From contig CAJBBX010000116.1 of the NCBI GenBank assembly GCA_903951425.1, positions 1 through 33,938 of the forward strand: a stretch of 33,938 nt of DNA. The letters are read 5' to 3'. Of this stretch, positions 1 to 14,159 are shown in pieces (the stretch's first letter is position 1; every line of letters begins with the position of its first letter). The position numbers and the translations under genes were made by a program. The DNA comes from an uncultured Chthonomonas sp. GTDB taxonomy: Bacteria > Armatimonadota > Chthonomonadetes > Chthonomonadales > CAJBBX01. A model generated the notes under the pieces. The model saw only the letters and a list, made by a program, of their open reading frames with translations, did not search any database and had not been told where the DNA came from.

Positions 1-2153
1 ACCGCGACATCCGCGACCAGCTCCGGCGCCTCGGGCCGGGCGGGCGCATCGACGACGTGAAGCGGAGCTTCTTCTACCTGACCGGGCTGATGGACATGGG
101 CGTCGCGGTCCCGACGTGGATCGCGGCCTACGAGGTCGGCATGGATCAGTTCGCCGGGGACGAGGCGAAGGCGATCGACTACGCCGACCAGCTCGTGCGG
201 CAGAACAGCCTGACCCACCTCGGCTGGAGCGTGCTCCGGTGGTCGGACTGGCAGTTGTCCACAGAGCCAGATCGGGTGAAGGAACACCTCTCGATCCTGC
301 TTGATACGGGGGTTCGCCTTACCGTCCCCGCAGACCACCTGCCCTGTAAGCGTGGCGCGCTCATCGAGCTCATGGAACATCAGCAGGAAGCGCTGGAGGC
401 ACTCGCGTCGTTGCGCGCCGACGGCAACCAGATCGCGTTGCTTGCTCACGCCGTAGGGTCGGGCAAGACTACCACGGCCATCGAGGACGCACGCCGCGTC
501 GGCGGCAGAACGCTCTTCCTCGCGCATACTCACGAACTGGTCGACCAGGCCCTTGTGCGGTTCGGTGACCTGTGGCCCGAGCAGCGCGTTGCTCGGCTTG
601 GTGATGCCGACGCCGACACGACCCCCGTCGTTGTAGGCACTGTGCAGTCGATGGTGAACCGGCTGTCGGACTTCGGTGCCACGCACTTTGCATACATCAT
701 CATCGATGAGGCGCACCACGCGACGGCTCGGGAGTACCAGGCAATCTTGCGGTACTTCGACCCTGAGTTCCTGCTTGGCCTGACCGGTACGGACGAGCGC
801 GCTGACGGCCGGAGCGCCCTCGATGTGTTTGTCCATGCGGCGCACAGGCTTGGCCTTGAGGCCGCCGTGAAGCAGGGCATCCTCTGTGACGTCCGGTGTC
901 TGCGCGTGGAGACCAATGTCGATCTCAGAAACCTCAGGTTCGGAGGGATGAACTACCGGCAGGCCGACCTTGAGAAGCGCGTCACGATACCCTCTCGCAA
1001 TGAACTCATCGTTCGGACCTATGCCGACAACGTGCCAGGTAGGCGAGCAGTATGTTTCTGCGTGACTGTGGAGCATGCCGAATGTATGGCCAAACTCTTC
1101 CAAGATGCGGGCTTCGGCGCACAAGCCGTCAGCGGCCGCCTAAACCGGACTGAACGCCAGCGCGTTCTTGACGCGTACCGGTCGGGCGAGGTCCGTGTCC
1201 TGTGCGCCCGCGATGTACTGAATGAGGGCTGGGACGCACCTGAGACCGAGGTGCTACTGATGGCGCGCCCAACCCTCTCCAAGGTGGTCTACCAGCAGCA
1301 GTTGGGCCGTGGTATGCGGCGGCATCCTGGCAAGGAGGCGTTGGTAGTATTCGACTTCGTGGACCTCTTCGGTCGCCACAACCAGGCGCTCAGTGTTCAT
1401 CGTCTCACCAAGAAGCCCCAGTACCGGGCAGGATCGCGTGTGTTCGGCGATGACGATACCGCCGCACCGACCGAACTGCCACTGCATCTCTGGTGCCGTG
1501 ACCTTGTTGATGTGGCCATATTCGACTGGCAGGAGCGCGTCGAGGGCATGGTCACCGCGTGCGGCCTCGCGCGGCTGCTCCGCGTCTCCGAGGGCTGGGT
1601 GATCGACCGACTCAGGAAGGGCCGTATACGCGCAGACGAAGTGATTGACCTTGGCGGAGGTGCCTCCGTGGCGTACTTCAGCCGTGAGCGTGTGCCAGAC
1701 CTGAGGGATCAGTACGGCCTCAGCGAGGTCACCGAGGACAACCTGTACGACGATCTCGTGCGCTTCCTGATCGAGATGGACATGACGGCGTCATACAAGC
1801 CTGTATGGTTCGGCGCACTGCTCCGACTGGCCGACGAGCATGGCAAGGTCAGGGTTGCGGACGTCACCGCCGAGTTCCATCGGTTCTACCTGGTTCGCGA
1901 CGGCGCAGGACTGCCGGCGGAGCGAGGTGCCCGCGTGCTGTGCAACCCCGCCGGGCTGAGCCCGTCCCGTGTGCTGCAGACCATCAACCAGGGCCCGATG
2001 GACCGGTTCGAGCGGCTGGGCTTCGTCAGGTACGCGCGAGACCGAGCCTACTACGAGATCCCGCCTGTGATCTGGAAGAGGCTGCGGCAACCCGATGCGA
2101 GGAGCGAGGCGCTACGGCTCTGCGACGAGGGCGTCGCAAGGTACTTCCGGTGA
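1..2153 (+). CDS. SF2 DEAD/DEAH helicase (5'-partial), restriction/defence type
   Basis: Superfamily 2 ATP-dependent helicase or translocase. The frame is open to the left edge (first full codon at base 3), so the gene probably begins outside the window; the first in-frame start candidate is GTG 57. Numbering from that GTG, Walker A (GSGKTT) has its Lys near 137, the DEAH box is at 217-220, motif III reads LTGTDER, and motif VI (QQLGRGMRRHPG) lies near 413. About 200 residues follow the helicase core. They include a helix-turn-helix-like patch (ARLLRVSEGWVIDRLRKGRI) and a segment with TASYKPVWFGALLRLAD, resembling the 'SYKPV-LLALL' element seen in restriction-type helicases. No nuclease motif is visible in this protein. 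It converges on the nuclease gene 70 bases downstream, which suggests a two-component DNA-targeting module. The helicase call is firm; the defence role is inferred from domains and island context. Confidence 0.85.
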   Translation, partial: RDIRDQLRRLGPGGRIDDVKRSFFYLTGLMDMGVAVPTWIAAYEVGMDQFAGDEAKAIDYADQLVRQNSLTHLGWSVLRWSDWQLSTEPDRVKEHLSILLDTGVRLTVPADHLPCKRGALIELMEHQQEALEALASLRADGNQIALLAHAVGSGKTTTAIEDARRVGGRTLFLAHTHELVDQALVRFGDLWPEQRVARLGDADADTTPVVVGTVQSMVNRLSDFGATHFAYIIIDEAHHATAREYQAILRYFDPEFLLGLTGTDERADGRSALDVFVHAAHRLGLEAAVKQGILCDVRCLRVETNVDLRNLRFGGMNYRQADLEKRVTIPSRNELIVRTYADNVPGRRAVCFCVTVEHAECMAKLFQDAGFGAQAVSGRLNRTERQRVLDAYRSGEVRVLCARDVLNEGWDAPETEVLLMARPTLSKVVYQQQLGRGMRRHPGKEALVVFDFVDLFGRHNQALSVHRLTKKPQYRAGSRVFGDDDTAAPTELPLHLWCRDLVDVAIFDWQERVEGMVTACGLARLLRVSEGWVIDRLRKGRIRADEVIDLGGGASVAYFSRERVPDLRDQYGLSEVTEDNLYDDLVRFLIEMDMTASYKPVWFGALLRLADEHGKVRVADVTAEFHRFYLVRDGAGLPAERGARVLCNPAGLSPSRVLQTINQGPMDRFERLGFVRYARDRAYYEIPPVIWKRLRQPDARSEALRLCDEGVARYFR

Positions 2154-2223: not shown

Positions 2224-3027
2224 CTACTCTGGGGCTACCTGACCACCGTAGCATTGCACGGCCTCACGGACGCAGGCAACCGCGTCCGGCAGAGCATCGC
2301 GAATGTCGGCCGTCCCAAACCGGAGGATGTGCCAGCCGTTGACCGTTAGGGCATTGTCACGGCGTCGGTCCTTAGCGGCCCGCTCCACGCCGGTATGCCA
2401 CTTGTCGCCGTCGCACTCCACATCGAGGCCGGAATCGCGGCAATGGAGCGCCAGGTCCAGACACCGCATCGTTGGGCAGCGCTGCCTCGCTCCGGGGCTG
2501 GGTACCTCCAGCCACAACTGGCGCTCTGGCAGCAGGCCCTCCTCTCGCAGGCCCGAAAACAGCCTGTCCTCAATCGGTGTGCCCATGAAGAGGTCATTGA
2601 TGTCAGTTGCCCCGGCGGCTCTAGATGCGGTTGTGGGTACAAAGAGGAGCCGCCGCCTGATGCGGCTTAGGATCGGCGTGGTCAACCGCCGTAGCGGCCC
2701 CAGCTCAAAGCAATGGTACAGCTCCTCGGCACGCAGGTGCTCGGGCTCGTCGGGCAGCAGGTCAACCCGTCGGGCTCGCTCATACCCGGTCACGTTTGCC
2801 GTGTATTCGATCCGCCTCCGCTCGGCTCCGAATGAGTCGGGCTGGTAGAAGAGCAACTGCCTGAAGGCGGTCAGGTTGCCGAGCTCGTTCACGGACCGGC
2901 TCGGTCGCGCCCGGTACCAGCCCTGGCGCTCGGCCAGGTCGCGGTCGCGGCGGAGAGGCAGGAGCACAACCAGCGTGTCACGCGGCTCGCGCGGCCGGCT
3001 GGGCGTGCGCGTAGAGTGCCTCGGCAT
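2224..3027 (-). CDS. DUF559/Vsr-like PD-(D/E)XK endonuclease
   Basis: Predicted 267-residue nuclease. The C-terminal third carries the DUF559/very-short-patch-repair-like fold signature: CLDLALHC, then LDVECDGDKWH with Glu204 and Asp206, then RRRDNAL and GWHILRFG. The acidic residues and the trailing R-x-x-D-N...G-W-x-I-L-R-F pattern are what this family uses for metal binding and DNA cleavage. The N-terminal ~150 residues match nothing I recognise and may be a target-recognition or partner-binding part. I chose ATG 3027 over the longer GTG 3054 because a GGAGGG site sits 7 bases upstream of it. It is convergent with the helicase gene. An isolated TAGAAT (-10-like, 3062-3067) lies upstream but has no convincing -35. 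The fold is likely; the biological target is unknown. Confidence 0.75.
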   Translation of the reverse strand: MPRHSTRTPSRPREPRDTLVVLLPLRRDRDLAERQGWYRARPSRSVNELGNLTAFRQLLFYQPDSFGAERRRIEYTANVTGYERARRVDLLPDEPEHLRAEELYHCFELGPLRRLTTPILSRIRRRLLFVPTTASRAAGATDINDLFMGTPIEDRLFSGLREEGLLPERQLWLEVPSPGARQRCPTMRCLDLALHCRDSGLDVECDGDKWHTGVERAAKDRRRDNALTVNGWHILRFGTADIRDALPDAVACVREAVQCYGGQVAPE

Positions 3028-3034
3028 CGCGATA

Positions 3035-3040
3035 CCCTCC
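3035..3040 (-). promoter_or_regulatory. Shine-Dalgarno GGAGGG deciding the nuclease start
   Basis: GGAGGG on the minus strand lies 7 bases before ATG 3027. It lies downstream of GTG 3054, inside the longer reading frame, so it supports the shorter 267-residue protein. Confidence 0.7.
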
Positions 3041-3416
3041 AGGTTGGCGACCACGGTTGGGATTCTATGGTCTGCGCTATTCTGCTATTCGCCGGTCAGT
3101 GCCGCAAATCCTTCGTCGAGCCACCGACGGCAACCACCCAACCGCCGCTGCAAGCGGCTCAAAGCCGTGTGGCCGAGTTTGCGCCACGAGCACTGAGCGA
3201 TGGATCACCGGTCCAGTGCAGCGATGCGCACGGGTCGTGGTAACCAGACGTCGGTGCGATCCGCAGGGCACGTGTTGCACAGTGCCACACCCCACCGCCA
3301 ACCCGCCGCCGCGGTCACCATGCCCCACAGACCCGGCGATGGTGATATACTCTCTGGTGAGCATTCGCTCGCCTCTTTCCGGTCGGTCGCCGGAGCGGTG
3401 CTTGTTCGCGCCCCTG
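3041..3416. other. Gene-free stretch at the putative island edge
   Basis: About 375 bases hold no convincing coding frame. The open frames crossing it on both strands lack Shine-Dalgarno sites, and those running into the tRNA fragment encode the well-known spurious antisense-tRNA peptide (…TGLEPAT…). A TATACT hexamer (3346-3351) could be a -10 element for a transcript into the tRNA fragment, but no -35 accompanies it. A short tandem GCTATTCT/GCTATTCG sits near 3077-3092. Confidence 0.5.
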
Positions 3417-3449
3417 GGGTCGCGGGTTCGAGTCCCGTTTCCCGCTCCA
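3417..3449 (+). tRNA. tRNA-Gly 3' fragment (T-arm, acceptor 3' strand, CCA); probable att site
   Basis: The sequence has a perfect T-arm (stem GCGGG/CCCGT around loop TTCGAGT, 3422-3438). It continues directly into the acceptor 3' strand TTCCCGC, discriminator T3446 and an encoded CCA. CCCGC plus a U discriminator is the tRNA-Gly ending. A matching 5' acceptor strand (GCGGGAA) does not occur in the preceding 180 bases, and no anticodon arm can be folded upstream, so this is a fragment rather than a working tRNA. A native-looking terminator follows 5 bases later. Integrases of mobile islands commonly duplicate exactly this 3' part of a tRNA gene; an element lying to the left would leave the intact tRNA at its other end. 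A decayed tRNA pseudogene is the alternative. Confidence 0.7.
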
Positions 3450-3454
3450 TTCAT

Positions 3455-3490
3455 GCGGCCTCGGCTCCGATGCCGAGGCCGCTTTCTGTT
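3455..3490 (+). terminator. Intrinsic terminator after the tRNA-Gly fragment
   Basis: A perfect 11-bp stem (GCGGCCTCGGC at 3455-3465, GCCGAGGCCGC at 3472-3482) closes a 6-base loop and is followed by TTTCTGTT. It sits just after the encoded CCA, as expected for the original tRNA transcription unit. It lies only 30 bases before the M16 peptidase start. Confidence 0.8.
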
Positions 3491-3520: not shown

Positions 3521-4783
3521 ATGCCCTCTGAGGCCATACAACTCAGCACCCTTCCCAACGGCGTCCGGGTCGTATCCGAGACGGCGTCGCACGTGCAGAG
3601 CCTCTCGCTGGGGCTCTGGGTGGATGCCGGATCGGTGGACGAGCCCGCCGGCGTTCGGGGGATCTCGCACTTCATCGAGCATATGCTCTTCAAGGGCACG
3701 GAGAAGCGCAACGCGCAGCAGATCGCCGAGGCCATCGAGTCACGCGGGGGGTCGCTGAACGCCTTCACGGACAAGGAGTGCACCTGCTTCTACGTGAAGT
3801 CGCTGGCCGAGGACGCAGAGGTCGCCATGGATGTGCTGAGCGACATGCTCCTGGCATCCAGGCTCGACCCCGGCGAGCTGGCGCTGGAGCGGAACGTGGT
3901 GCTAGAGGAGATCAAGCGGTACGAGGACACGCCGGACGATATCATCCACGATGTCTTCACGCAGACGCTCTGGAAACGACACCCGCTGGGCCGGCCGGTG
4001 CTGGGAACGGCGCGAACCGTGGCCGAGCTGGACGACGTGGCCGTGCGCGCCTACCTGGCTGAGAACTACACGCCGGACCGCATGGTGGTGGCGGCGGCCG
4101 GCAACGTGCCGCACGAGCGGATCGTGGAGCTGGCGTCGCAGATGCTGGGCGGCCACGCGGGAGCCTCCAAGCGGAAGAGCCGCAAGCCGCCGCACGTCTC
4201 GCGGTTGAGCAAGAGCGTATGGAAGCGCACCGAGCAGGTCCACTTCTGCCTGGGCGGAGACGGCGCCGGACAGCACGACGTCCGCCGCTTCCCGCTCACC
4301 ATCCTGGATATGGTGCTGGGCGGCAACATGAGCTCCCGCCTTTTCCAGGAGATCCGGGAGAAGCGCGGCCTGGCCTACTCCATCGGCTCGTACCTCACGG
4401 TCTTCCAGGACTGCGGCTACTTCACCGTCTATGGCGGAACCAGCCCGGACACCTACGACCAGGTGCTGGAGCTGGTCCACGCGGAGCTGGCCAAGGTGCG
4501 GCAGGAGGGCCTCACGCCGGACGAGGTGGCGAAGGCCAAGAACCAGGTGCGCGGCTCGCTGATCCTGGGCCTGGAGGGCATGAGCGCACGCATGATGCGG
4601 CTGGGCAAGTCGATCCTGAGCTTTGGGTACGTGCCGTCGCTGGACGAATTCGCCAAGCGCATCAACGCCGTGACGCTGGAAGACGTGCAGCAAGTCGCCG
4701 CCGCCGGACTGGATCCGGACGGCCTCACCACCACCGCCATCGGGCCCTTCGCAAGGCTCGCGGCGGCCGAGGAAGCGGCATGA
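3521..4783 (+). CDS. M16 family zinc peptidase (insulinase/processing-peptidase-like)
   Basis: A 420-residue single-unit M16 metallopeptidase. The inverted zinc motif HFIEH is at residues 50-54, and the third ligand region (LEEIKRYED, Glu129/130) is at the family's usual distance. The C-terminal half carries the R/Y-type element of M16 proteins (SSRLFQEIREKRGLAYSIGS). Length matches the bacterial PqqF/YmxG-like group. ATG 3521 was chosen because AAAGGA lies 6 bases before it and homology starts at once (LSTLPNGVRVVSE); the longer frame from 3200 would translate through the tRNA fragment and terminator. It overlaps dapB by four bases (ATGA), so the two are co-translated; a peptidase-dapB linkage is familiar from Firmicutes-like genomes. 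It is probably cytosolic, since no signal peptide is visible. The physiological substrate is unknown. Confidence 0.92.
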   Translation: MPSEAIQLSTLPNGVRVVSETASHVQSLSLGLWVDAGSVDEPAGVRGISHFIEHMLFKGTEKRNAQQIAEAIESRGGSLNAFTDKECTCFYVKSLAEDAEVAMDVLSDMLLASRLDPGELALERNVVLEEIKRYEDTPDDIIHDVFTQTLWKRHPLGRPVLGTARTVAELDDVAVRAYLAENYTPDRMVVAAAGNVPHERIVELASQMLGGHAGASKRKSRKPPHVSRLSKSVWKRTEQVHFCLGGDGAGQHDVRRFPLTILDMVLGGNMSSRLFQEIREKRGLAYSIGSYLTVFQDCGYFTVYGGTSPDTYDQVLELVHAELAKVRQEGLTPDEVAKAKNQVRGSLILGLEGMSARMMRLGKSILSFGYVPSLDEFAKRINAVTLEDVQQVAAAGLDPDGLTTTAIGPFARLAAAEEAA

Positions 4784-6635: not shown

Positions 6636-7616
6636 GTGGCGCAGATTGAGGTTCGGGGCCTCCGCAAGAGCTTCCGTGCACCGCTTCGGTCGGCCGGGCC
6701 CTTCGGCGCCCTGAAAGACCTCCTCCACCGCCGCACCCGCACCGTCGAAGCCCTGAAGGGCATCACATTCGAGATCGACGCTGGCCAGATCGTCGGATGC
6801 ATCGGGCCCAACGGCGCGGGCAAGTCCACGGCGATCAAGATCATCGCGGGCATCATGAACCCCGACGGCGGCGAGGCAACCGTGCTGGGACGCACCCCAT
6901 GGGCCGACCGCATCGCGCACGTCCGCCACATCGGAGTGGTCTTCGGGCAGCGGACGCAACTCTGGTGGGACCTGCCCGTCATCGACTCCTTCGCCCTGCT
7001 GCGTGAGATCTACGACGTCCCCCGCCGCGAGTACGAACAGACGCTGGCCGACGTGGTGGAGCGGTTCAAGCTGGCCGAGGTGCTCGACTCGCCGGTGCGG
7101 CAGCTGAGCCTCGGACTGAGGATGCGGTGCGACCTGGCCGCGGCGCTGCTGCACCGGCCCAGCATCCTCTTCCTGGACGAACCGACCATCGGCCTCGACG
7201 CCGTCTCCAAGCTCGCCCTGCGCGAGGCGATCCGCGACTGGTCCGCCGAGCGGGGCCTCACGGTCCTCCTCACCACCCACGACATGGACGACATCGAGGA
7301 CCTCTGCCGTCGCGTGCTGCTCATCGCGGACGGTTCGCTGCTGCTGGACGGCGCCATCGACGACCTCCGCCGCATGAGCAGCGCCAGGCGCACACTGATG
7401 ATCGACCTAGCGGCCGGAGTGGCCAACGTGGAACTGGAGGGAGCTGAGTTGGTCCGCCGCGAGGGCGACCGGCTCTGGCTCGAGTATGACCCCGAGCAGG
7501 TAGCCACGCATGAGCTGATCGCGCGAGCCGCGGCGGCCTTCCCCATTCGCGACCTGACGGTGGCGGACCGGCCCATCGAGGAAGTGGTGGCGCAGGTCTA
7601 CCGCGACGCGCCCTGA
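6636..7616 (+). CDS. ABC-2 exporter ATP-binding protein
   Basis: A 326-residue ATPase of the ABC-2 export class (COG4586-like). Visible motifs are Walker A GPNGAGKST, a Q-loop region VVFGQRTQLWWDLP, signature LSLGLRMRCDLAAALL, Walker B ILFLDEPTIGLD and the switch TTHDMDD. The 'QRTQLWWDLP' stretch is typical of this subfamily, which normally pairs with two DUF990-type permeases. A C-terminal extension of about 90 residues follows the ATPase core. Start is GTG 6636; its Shine-Dalgarno site is weak. The stop overlaps the permease start by one base (TGATG). The exported substrate is unknown. Confidence 0.9.
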   Translation: MAQIEVRGLRKSFRAPLRSAGPFGALKDLLHRRTRTVEALKGITFEIDAGQIVGCIGPNGAGKSTAIKIIAGIMNPDGGEATVLGRTPWADRIAHVRHIGVVFGQRTQLWWDLPVIDSFALLREIYDVPRREYEQTLADVVERFKLAEVLDSPVRQLSLGLRMRCDLAAALLHRPSILFLDEPTIGLDAVSKLALREAIRDWSAERGLTVLLTTHDMDDIEDLCRRVLLIADGSLLLDGAIDDLRRMSSARRTLMIDLAAGVANVELEGAELVRREGDRLWLEYDPEQVATHELIARAAAAFPIRDLTVADRPIEEVVAQVYRDAP

Positions 7617-11451: not shown

Positions 11452-12267
11452 ATGATCCGATCGATGCGGCGGTACCTGCGCATCTATGGTCGCCTGGCCG
11501 CCGCCTCCGTGCGGTCGCAGTGGCAGTACCGAGCCTCATTCGCGCTCTATTCGGCCTCCCAACTGGTGGCCACGCTGGCCGAGTTCGGCGCGATCTGGGC
11601 GCTCTACGCGCGGTTCGGGTCGCTGCCGGGGTGGCGGCTATCAGAGGTGGCAGTGCTGTACGGCATCAGCAACGTGGCCTTCGCGTTAGCCGAGGCCGGC
11701 GCCCGGGGTTTCGACGTCTTCCCCGGCATGGTCCGCACGGGCGACTTCGACCGCCTGTTGCTTCGGCCACTGCCCACGGCGTTCCAGCTCGCGGCCCACG
11801 ACGTGCAGATCATGCGAGTAGGACGGCTGGCACAGGGCGCCGCCATCCTCGTGTGGGGCTGCATGGGCCTGGGCATCGGATGGGACGCGGCGCGCTTGAC
11901 GCTGCTGGCCCTCTGCGTCGTGGGCGGCGCCTGCATCTTCGCCGCGCTCTTCGTGCTGCAGGCCACGCTGGCGTTCTGGACCATCGAGTCTCTGGAGGTG
12001 GTGAACATCGTCACCTATGGCGGCAACCAGATGGCCCAGTACCCGCTGACGATCTACCGGCCCTGGTTCCGGCTCTTCTTCACGGTGGCGGTGCCGCTGG
12101 CTGCGATCAACTACGTGCCCCTGGCCGCGCTCTTGTCGCGCCCGGATCTCAGCGGGCTTCCCGCGCCGCTCAACTGGCTGGCTCCCTGCGTAGGGGCGCC
12201 CTTCCTGGCGGCGTGCTTGCTGATCTGGAAGCTCGGCGAGCGTCACTACGCCTCGACAGGATCGTAG
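11452..12267 (+). CDS. ABC-2 exporter permease 2 (DUF990-like)
   Basis: A 271-residue membrane protein with about six hydrophobic segments. SVRSQWQYRASFALYSASQL and MVRTGDFDRLLLRPLPTAFQ match the DUF990/COG3694 permease pattern ('VR-G-fD-lLlRPl'). It is the natural partner of the ATPase at 6636 and the permease at 7616. ATG 11452 is preferred; a TTG at 11425 would add nine residues, and neither start has a strong Shine-Dalgarno site. It follows the secreted protein by 28 bases and ends 9 bases from a convergent gene, with no clear terminator between. Confidence 0.85.
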   Translation: MIRSMRRYLRIYGRLAAASVRSQWQYRASFALYSASQLVATLAEFGAIWALYARFGSLPGWRLSEVAVLYGISNVAFALAEAGARGFDVFPGMVRTGDFDRLLLRPLPTAFQLAAHDVQIMRVGRLAQGAAILVWGCMGLGIGWDAARLTLLALCVVGGACIFAALFVLQATLAFWTIESLEVVNIVTYGGNQMAQYPLTIYRPWFRLFFTVAVPLAAINYVPLAALLSRPDLSGLPAPLNWLAPCVGAPFLAACLLIWKLGERHYASTGS

Positions 12268-12276
12268 CGGCGCGGC

Positions 12277-13146
12277 CTACTCTTCCTGGCGGCCAAGATC
12301 GGCGGGCGGGCGGGGCTGGAGCGCCATGGCCGCCACGACCGTGGCGATGTACGGTATGCTCCGCAGCAGCTCGCCCGGCAGTGCGACGCTGCCCTGCAGC
12401 TGGAACTGAAGCGCGTCGAAGGCGCCGAAGGCCAGCGCCGCGGCGGCCATCCCCAGGGGCGTCCAGCGCCCACAGACCACTGCCGCCAGCGCGATGAAGC
12501 CGCGGCCGCTCACCATGTCGTCGCTGAACCTGCCCACCTGCGCCAGCGAGAGGTAGGCCCCTGCAAGGCCGGCCAGGACGCCGGATGCCGCCAGGCCCAC
12601 CATCTTCACGCGGGCCGTATCGACCCCAGCCATGCGCGTGCTGGCCTCGCTCTCGCCCACCGCCCGGACGCGCAACCCCAGCGGCGTGTGGTAGAGGACC
12701 AGATGGAAGATGACCGCTAGCGCCAGGGCCAGACCCGTAAACAGGGCCGTGGGGAGCATGGTCTCGATGCGGGCCTCGACCGGCGGGTCCGCCTGGCTAA
12801 AGAGCCGCCGCAGCAGGAACGTAGTGGAGTGCAGGGCGAGGAGGTTGATCGCAACGCCGCTGACGATGTGGTTCAGACGTAGCTTCCGGGTCGCCCAGAG
12901 GTGCGTGAGCCCCACCAGCATCCCAACCGTCACGGCCGCCAGCACGCCGACCAGCGGACCTGCAAGGCGGCCGGCGGCGAGGCCGGAGAACGCCCCGGCC
13001 AGCATCATGCCCTCCAGCGCGATGTTGACGATCCCAACTCGCTCCGAACAGATGCCGCCCAGGCCGGCAAGGACGAGCGGCGTGGCCTGTCGGAGCGCCG
13101 AGACGCCCAGCGGCAAGAGGAACCCGGCGAGCTCGGGACCGCTCAT
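12277..13146 (-). CDS. BMP-family ABC importer permease (NupQ/YufQ-like)
   Basis: A 289-residue inner-membrane permease of the branched-chain/ribose-type (BPD_transp_2) fold. Family landmarks are GLGGICSERVGIVNIALEGM near the N-terminus, then LRLNHIVSGVAINLLA and GVDTARVKMVGLAASGVLAG. These match the second permease of guanosine/nucleoside importers (NupQ). Its ATG overlaps the stop of the upstream permease by four bases. It is the last gene of a three-gene minus-strand operon. Nucleoside specificity is inferred from the family; other BMP-type ligands are possible. Confidence 0.88.
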   Translation of the reverse strand: MSGPELAGFLLPLGVSALRQATPLVLAGLGGICSERVGIVNIALEGMMLAGAFSGLAAGRLAGPLVGVLAAVTVGMLVGLTHLWATRKLRLNHIVSGVAINLLALHSTTFLLRRLFSQADPPVEARIETMLPTALFTGLALALAVIFHLVLYHTPLGLRVRAVGESEASTRMAGVDTARVKMVGLAASGVLAGLAGAYLSLAQVGRFSDDMVSGRGFIALAAVVCGRWTPLGMAAAALAFGAFDALQFQLQGSVALPGELLRSIPYIATVVAAMALQPRPPADLGRQEE

Positions 13147-14159
13147 CGGCGCCGTCCCTTCAGGTACCGGGCGCCGGCCGAGAAGATGACCACGCCCTGC
13201 ACGATGCCCGCGATCTGCCTAGGCACGTGGGTCCAGGCCTCCATATGGGTCGCACCTGCGCTGAGGCCGCCAAACAGCAGCGATGAGAGCGTCACTCCCA
13301 GCGCACCGCCGCCTCCGAGAAGGGCCACAGCGATGCTGTCAAAACCGTAGCCCGGCGAGAAGGCATCGAGGTAGCGGCGATGGACGCCCAGCACCTCGAT
13401 CGCGCCGGCCAGTCCGGCCAGTCCGCCTGAAATGGCCATGGCTGAGATCATCGTTCGGCCCACGTTGACACCGGCAACGCGGGCGGCATCGGCCCCCAGC
13501 CCGACAGCACGGATCTCGAAGCCCAGCGCCGTGTGCCGCAACAGCACGGCGACGCCGACGGCGGCGAGTACCGCCAGCCCGAAGCCCGCCGAGAAGTTGC
13601 TGCCGTCCGCGGCCGCCCAGAGCCGCGCCGAAGGCTCGACCATCGAGGTGGCCGGCGCCATGCTGACAGGGTCCTTCATGGCTCCGTTGACCAAGAAGTG
13701 GGCGAGCTGGATGGCGAGGTAGTTGAGCATGATGGTCACGATGACCTCATGCGACCCCCGCCAGGCGCGCAGGGCGCCGGGGATCGCCGCCCAGAGCGCC
13801 CCAACGAACACGCCGGCGGCCAGGCAAACCGGGATGTGGATCCATGCGGGTAGCCCGGTGAACGCATGGCCCGCCCAGGCGGCCGCCAGCGCTCCCAGGA
13901 TCAACTGACCCTCGGCGCCGATGTTGAAGAGACCCGCCCGAAGCGCCACCGCCACCGCCAGCCCGCTAAGGAGCAACGGCGTGGCCTTGGAGAGCGTGCG
14001 CAGGAGGCCCGTGGAGGAGCCGCAGGAGCCCTGAACGAGCGCAGTCAGCGCCTCGAGCGGACTGCCGCCGCAGGCCCATACCACGACGCCCGCGATGACG
14101 AAGGCGCCGACCACCGAGAGTAGCGGTTGGACGGCGGGCGCGAGGCGTCGCAGGATCAT
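13143..14159 (-). CDS. BMP-family ABC importer permease (NupP/YufP-like)
   Basis: A 338-residue permease with about nine hydrophobic segments. LRAGLFNIGAEGQLILGALA, HEVIVTIMLNYLAIQLA and GFEIRAVGLGADAARVAGVN are typical of the first permease in NupOPQ/YufOPQ systems. It overlaps both neighbours by four bases (ATGA), so all three genes are translationally coupled. Together with the 12277-13146 product it would form the heterodimeric channel for a nucleoside-like ligand. Confidence 0.88.
   Translation of the reverse strand: MILRRLAPAVQPLLSVVGAFVIAGVVVWACGGSPLEALTALVQGSCGSSTGLLRTLSKATPLLLSGLAVAVALRAGLFNIGAEGQLILGALAAAWAGHAFTGLPAWIHIPVCLAAGVFVGALWAAIPGALRAWRGSHEVIVTIMLNYLAIQLAHFLVNGAMKDPVSMAPATSMVEPSARLWAAADGSNFSAGFGLAVLAAVGVAVLLRHTALGFEIRAVGLGADAARVAGVNVGRTMISAMAISGGLAGLAGAIEVLGVHRRYLDAFSPGYGFDSIAVALLGGGGALGVTLSSLLFGGLSAGATHMEAWTHVPRQIAGIVQGVVIFSAGARYLKGRRR

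What the first reader, a model, noticed from the sequence alone, without database searches (positions are those of the whole stretch)
3417..3490. tRNA-Gly 3' end plus terminator marks a probable island boundary
A perfect T-arm, acceptor 3' strand and encoded CCA of tRNA-Gly are present with no 5' half upstream, followed 5 bases later by a strong terminator. This is what an integrase leaves at the far side when an element enters the 3' end of a tRNA gene. It implies that bases 1 to about 3416 are the right end of an integrated element, with the intact tRNA-Gly and perhaps an integrase further left.
Basis: partly seen in the sequence, partly recalled or inferred. Interest (0 to 1): 0.62.

Follow-up and report, generated by a model that had tools for sequence, protein, structure and literature searches.

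The report
Small defence island beside tRNA gene
The tRNA-gene fragment is the genuine right-hand scar of a small (about 4 kb) inserted DNA element that carries restriction-type defence genes but no integrase of its own; a close relative still shows the intact, uninterrupted site.

Summary
Window 3417-3451 is an exact 35-bp copy of the 3' end of tRNA-Gly(CCC) with no 5' half, followed by a strong terminator and an M16 peptidase gene. In the same genome, contig C1 ends with the intact tRNA-Gly(CCC), the same 35 bp, then 793 bp that finish with the first 62 codons of the helicase gene whose remainder starts at window 177. A same-genus relative (G001) has the empty site: C1's left flank (96%), intact tRNA, terminator, M16. 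The element is therefore about 4.07 kb.

Two corrections. First, the element holds no integrase: it has a methyltransferase-like fragment, an endonuclease-helicase and a DUF559-type nuclease. Second, window 1-176 is not element DNA but a chimeric assembly tail of phage-like sequence.

A second relative (G002) holds a different 7.3-kb restriction module at the same site, also without integrase, sharing only about 110 bp at the right end. The best reading is a non-autonomous, CIME-like tRNA island at a recurrent insertion site for defence genes in Armatimonadota: a new member of a known kind.

The parts
1..176 (.). Chimeric assembly tail, not part of the element; encodes a piece like a phage protein
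   Evidence: Helicase homology to relatives starts only at 176-177; G001 has other sequence there; no second copy in the genome; 50% identity to Cobetia phage Carin1 gp32, E 5e-14
177..2153 (+). Endonuclease-helicase gene, all but its first 74 codons (62 of these are on contig C1, about 12 are missing)
   Evidence: ResIII/Helicase_C; N-terminal MTES_1575 nuclease-like domain in the full-length G001 homologue, 29.4 bits, below Pfam's cut-off; PADLOC mREase_IV 171.9 bits; 86% protein identity to the G001 homologue
2224..3054 (-). DUF559 / MTES_1575-like nuclease gene
   Evidence: PF04480 26.4 bits (cut-off 20.6); PF18741 31.8 bits (below its cut-off of 38.2)
3304..3416 (+). Right arm of the element, shared with the G002 element; contains a 28-bp block identical in both (3335-3362)
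   Evidence: Local alignment score 127 against shuffle maximum 54; 28-bp block found only in G000 and G002 among 291 phylum genomes with up to 3 mismatches
3417..3451 (+). attR core: 3' fragment of tRNA-Gly(CCC) (3417-3449) plus TT; direct repeat of C1:4771-4805
   Evidence: Exact 35-bp match to C1 and to the G001 empty site
3455..3482 (+). Chromosomal terminator of the original tRNA-Gly gene
   Evidence: 11-bp stem, -27.3 kcal/mol, z -6.6; identical in G001 after the intact tRNA
3521..4783 (+). M16 peptidase gene, right chromosomal flank
   Evidence: PF00675, PF05193; follows tRNA-Gly(CCC) in G001, G003, G004, G005 and G007

Best explanation
The fragment is attR of an element of about 4.07 kb inserted into the T-arm/acceptor end of tRNA-Gly(CCC). 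A tyrosine integrase recombined an element-borne copy of the tRNA 3' end with the chromosomal one. This regenerated an intact tRNA at the left end (attL, C1:4771-4805) and pushed the original 3' end and its terminator to the right (attR, window 3417-3451). The element carries restriction-type defence genes and no integrase, so it is non-autonomous: either it lost its integrase or it used one supplied by another element. Shown: both ends, the direct repeat, the empty site and the gene content. Inferred: that an integrase did it, which one, and that the genes defend against phages.
For: Intact tRNA-Gly(CCC) with the same 3' end on C1. Empty site in G001: C1 flank at 96%, intact tRNA, terminator and M16 at 94% contiguous, one copy of the 35-bp core. 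C1 and the window are joined by one gene: the G001 homologue is 732 aa, exactly 188 + 34 nt + window 177-2153. tRNA-Gly(CCC) before M16 is the arrangement in G003, G004, G005 and G007 too. G002 has another element at the same core, its two contigs overlapping by 12 bp inside dcm. No integrase among the element's genes. Intact tRNA plus displaced fragment is the accepted mark of an integrase-made tRNA island (PMC4383910).
Against: The C1-to-window join spans about 34 unread bases and was not seen in reads. No integrase in the element and no demonstrated trans-acting one. This is a metagenome-type assembly with at least one chimeric contig end.
Confidence: 0.88

Rival explanations
1. An autonomous island with an integrase inserted long ago in the ancestor of G000 and G002. 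The scar and about 110 bp of its right end remained, and the interior was later replaced by unrelated restriction modules through ordinary recombination. G001 lost it by exact excision or replacement.
For: The two elements share the right end but not the cargo or, significantly, the left end; arm identity (82-85%) is near the chromosomal 87%.
Against: The 35-bp fragment is unmutated in both species although a non-functional fragment should drift; the chromosomal spacer just downstream differs by only about 3% while the arm differs by about 17%. G001's site is exactly clean. The spacer holds a terminator and may be constrained, so this only leans.
Confidence: 0.3
2. The fragment is the remnant of a decayed duplicate tRNA-Gly gene, with no element involved.
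For: Several tRNA-Gly genes exist in the genome with very similar 3' ends.
Against: G001 has an intact tRNA exactly here with C1's left flank; the repeat is exact and ends sharply; the same happened with other cargo in G002.
Confidence: 0.03
3. The junction is an assembly artefact.
For: The contig carries a chimeric tail at 1-176 and C102 also ends in transposase-like sequence joined into M16.
Against: The same arm and fragment are joined in a separately assembled species, G002, and both ends of the element agree with one exact site-specific event.
Confidence: 0.04

Closest known systems
tRNA-gene genomic islands as defined by Islander (PMC4383910)
   Same: Intact regenerated tRNA at one end, displaced 3' fragment at the other, same orientation, size above 2 kb, empty site in a relative.
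   Different: No integrase gene inside; Islander's integrase filter would reject it.
CIME, cis-mobilizable element (PMC5704250)
   Same: Keeps attL and attR, lacks integration and transfer genes.
   Different: No evidence here that it descends from an ICE or IME; two unrelated cargoes with a common right end are not explained by simple decay.
Integrase-bearing tRNA-Gly elements of the same family (G001 at tRNA-Gly(GCC), G009 at tRNA-Gly(CCC))
   Same: Target tRNA-Gly genes; the G001 element carries the same helicase and DUF559 pair (helicase 86% identical protein).
   Different: They have an integrase directly after the tRNA plus primase/AAA genes and leave a longer fragment of about 50 bp that reaches into the anticodon arm.
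Type IV restriction-like nuclease-helicase (PADLOC mREase_IV)
   Same: ResIII and Helicase_C domains with a nuclease-like domain at the N-terminus.
   Different: Match covers 375 residues only; accompanied by a DUF559 gene; no activity known.

Membership tests
tRNA-gene genomic island (Islander definition) | 3' fragment of a tRNA gene at one end, in the same orientation as the intact tRNA | tested here: met
   Window 3417-3451 against C1:4771-4805
tRNA-gene genomic island (Islander definition) | Regenerated intact tRNA at the other end, fragment downstream of it | tested here: met
   tRNA-Gly(CCC) C1:4729-4803; C1 joined to the window through the helicase gene
tRNA-gene genomic island (Islander definition) | Length 2-200 kb | tested here: met
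   793 + 34 + 3240 = 4067 bp
tRNA-gene genomic island (Islander definition) | Integrase ORF inside the island | tested here: not met
   No PF00589 match on C1 or C116; only C53, C155 and C119 carry one
CIME (cis-mobilizable element) | attL and attR retained | tested here: met
   35-bp direct repeats at both ends
CIME (cis-mobilizable element) | Integration and transfer genes absent | tested here: met
   Three genes only, none of these kinds
CIME (cis-mobilizable element) | Derived from an ICE or IME by decay, movable after accretion with an active element | not testable with these tools
   No conjugation genes or relics seen; movement needs an experiment
Type IV restriction enzyme (PADLOC mREase_IV) | Match to the family's nuclease-helicase profile | tested here: inconclusive
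   171.9 bits, profile positions 175-567 of 945 only

The most novel reading that the evidence does not exclude
The G000 and G002 elements belong to a family of small integrase-less defence cassettes that share a conserved right-end recognition arm (with the 28-bp block GGCGATGGTGATATACTCTCTGGTGAGC) and are moved into tRNA-Gly(CCC) in trans by an integrase encoded elsewhere, swapping whole restriction modules between species.
Probability: 0.2. Interest if true: 0.5.

Novelty: new member of a known kind. Interest (0 to 1): 0.3.

Why it matters
It maps a recurrent tRNA-Gly insertion site with turnover of restriction modules in a poorly studied phylum (Armatimonadota), including small elements that island finders with an integrase filter discard. 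It also shows that the first 176 bases of the window should not be read as the organism's own DNA at this place.

Tried and rejected
Left-end similarity between the G000 and G002 elements looked real in BLAST, but that score came from the tRNA; the arms alone score 44 against a shuffle maximum of 56, so no claim is made. No inverted or direct arm repeats were found between left and right ends of either element. A 22-bp core of the conserved block has no exact match in viral contigs, and the 28-bp block occurs nowhere else in 291 phylum genomes. A trans-acting integrase was sought: C53 and C155 look like XerC/XerD (orthologues at 83-87% in both close relatives); C119 is not next to a tRNA gene and has no tested link to this site. 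C102 was considered as a second site: it has an intact tRNA-Gly(CCC), terminator and the start of M16, but its M16 is equally distant (about 80%) from all three species and the contig ends in transposase-like sequence, so it is probably a contaminant contig or a foreign segment. A structure prediction was not run because it would not bear on the island question. A final NCBIfam run on the integrases failed on a coordinate error and was not repeated, so the Xer assignment rests on orthology only.

Full report
What was checked. The window is the whole of contig C116 of a 6.08-Mb, 188-contig genome. A named record whose length and helicase match G001:C139 (JAPLCQ010000109.1, 19,111 bases, 100% protein identity) is an Armatimonadetes MAG from Lake Pavin, so the phylum is Armatimonadota. 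The fragment at 3417-3451 is exact, unique in the window and without a 5' half. The terminator after it is strong.

Where the other end is. The same 31 bases end two intact tRNA-Gly(CCC) genes in the genome. One, on C1, is followed by the same two extra bases (TT) and then by unrelated DNA. C1 ends 793 bp later inside an ORF that reads MPAAAPYRTEERFV...YAIEIDG. The homologue of the window's helicase in G001 begins with nearly this sequence and continues, after 34 more nucleotides, with the residues that start at window 177. The arithmetic closes: 188 + 34 nt is 74 codons, window 177-2153 adds 658 codons and a stop, and the sum of 732 aa is the length of the G001 protein. So C1 and C116 are neighbours, and the element between the repeats is 793 + 34 + 3240 = 4067 bp.

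The empty site. In G001 contig C99 the left flank of C1 (96% identity), an intact tRNA-Gly(CCC), the terminator and the M16 gene (94%) form one stretch with a single copy of the 35-bp sequence. In the more distant family members G003, G004 and G005, tRNA-Gly(CCC) also stands about 85-110 bp before M16.

What the element carries. From left to right: a methyltransferase-like piece on the minus strand (C1:4910-5377, matching only positions 316-417 of TIGR04096 at 64.5 bits, below the cut-off of 150); the endonuclease-helicase; and a DUF559/MTES_1575-like nuclease gene on the minus strand. The helicase's best match in the defence library is a type IV restriction enzyme. That these genes defend against phages is inference from family resemblance. 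No integrase is present.

Chimeric tail. DNA homology of the helicase to G001, G018 and G025 begins at window 176-177. Bases 1-185 have no second copy in the genome, and their translation matches a phage protein (Cobetia phage Carin1 gp32, 50% identity, E 5e-14). The phage-like match runs into the YADQ residues that also start the helicase homology, which may be where the assembler crossed over (inference).

Other elements at tRNA-Gly genes. In G002, contigs C99 and C1 overlap by 12 identical bases inside a DNA cytosine methyltransferase gene, which gives an element of about 7.29 kb between an intact tRNA-Gly(CCC) and the 3' fragment before M16. Its cargo is a cytosine methylase, an HATPase protein, a Z1-domain protein and a DUF4420 PD-(D/E)XK protein. 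It too lacks an integrase. The two elements share nothing in cargo, but their right ends align over about 110 bp with a score of 127 against a shuffle maximum of 54; the left ends are not significantly alike. A 28-bp block in the right end is identical in both and occurs nowhere else in 291 genomes of the phylum with up to 3 mismatches. G009, another genus of the family, has an integrase gene directly after tRNA-Gly(CCC) on one contig and a longer tRNA fragment directly before M16 on another; that these are two ends of one element is inferred. In G001 the helicase and DUF559 pair sits 9.4 kb downstream of tRNA-Gly(GCC), with an integrase gene next to that tRNA. So tRNA-Gly genes are repeated targets, the helicase module is found beside more than one tRNA-Gly, and two kinds of core are in use: one reaching into the anticodon arm (about 50 bp, with integrase) and one in the T-arm/acceptor (35-40 bp, no integrase). 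Islander describes the same classes of subsite.

Mechanism. Site-specific recombination by a tyrosine integrase is the established cause of an intact tRNA plus a displaced 3' fragment (PMC4383910). The exact repeats and the empty site are shown; the identity and origin of the enzyme are not. In G000 the only tyrosine recombinase genes are two Xer-like genes with orthologues in both close relatives and one on C119. The element is thus either a decayed island or one moved in trans. The unmutated fragment in both G000 and G002, beside an arm that differs by about one base in six, leans towards separate recent arrivals of related elements over one old shared insertion, but does not prove it.

Verdict. 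A real tRNA island boundary, correctly recognised from sequence alone. The kind is known; it fails the strict integrase-bearing definition and best fits a CIME-like or non-autonomous tRNA island. Interest is modest.

Noticed in passing
window 1-176: Chimeric contig end: phage-like coding sequence joined in frame to the helicase gene.
   Followed up: yes
L040 (own contig C102) 10725-11608: Second intact tRNA-Gly(CCC) with terminator and the first 214 residues of an M16 gene that is about 80% identical to all three species; the contig then runs into sequence that reads like an IS66-type transposase. Probably contaminant or foreign DNA.
   Followed up: partly
L039 (own contig C1) 138-4424 and L040 506-9505: Restriction-modification genes also lie on the 5' side of tRNA-Gly(CCC): an Eco57I-type methylase and a large helicase on C1, a methylase/ResIII pair on C102. 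Defence genes therefore gather on both sides of this tRNA.
   Followed up: partly
L066 (G001:C139) 12198-13344 and L078 (G001:C33) 7551-7601: Integrase gene directly after tRNA-Gly(GCC), with several copies of a repeat like AACTGGCAACTTACTTCC near both presumed ends, possibly integrase binding sites.
   Followed up: no
L113 (G001:C8), L112, L110, L116 (G009), L114 (G002): A clade of related tyrosine integrases in this family lies close to different tRNA genes: Gly(TCC), Gly(CCC), Gln(CTG), Asp(GTC). It looks like one integrase family that has switched tRNA targets repeatedly.
   Followed up: partly
L070 (own contig C119) 3692-8854: Integrase gene beside genes that read like DGQHR-domain and tRNA-guanine transglycosylase-like proteins; may be a DNA-modification island of the Dpd kind. 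Judged by eye only.
   Followed up: no
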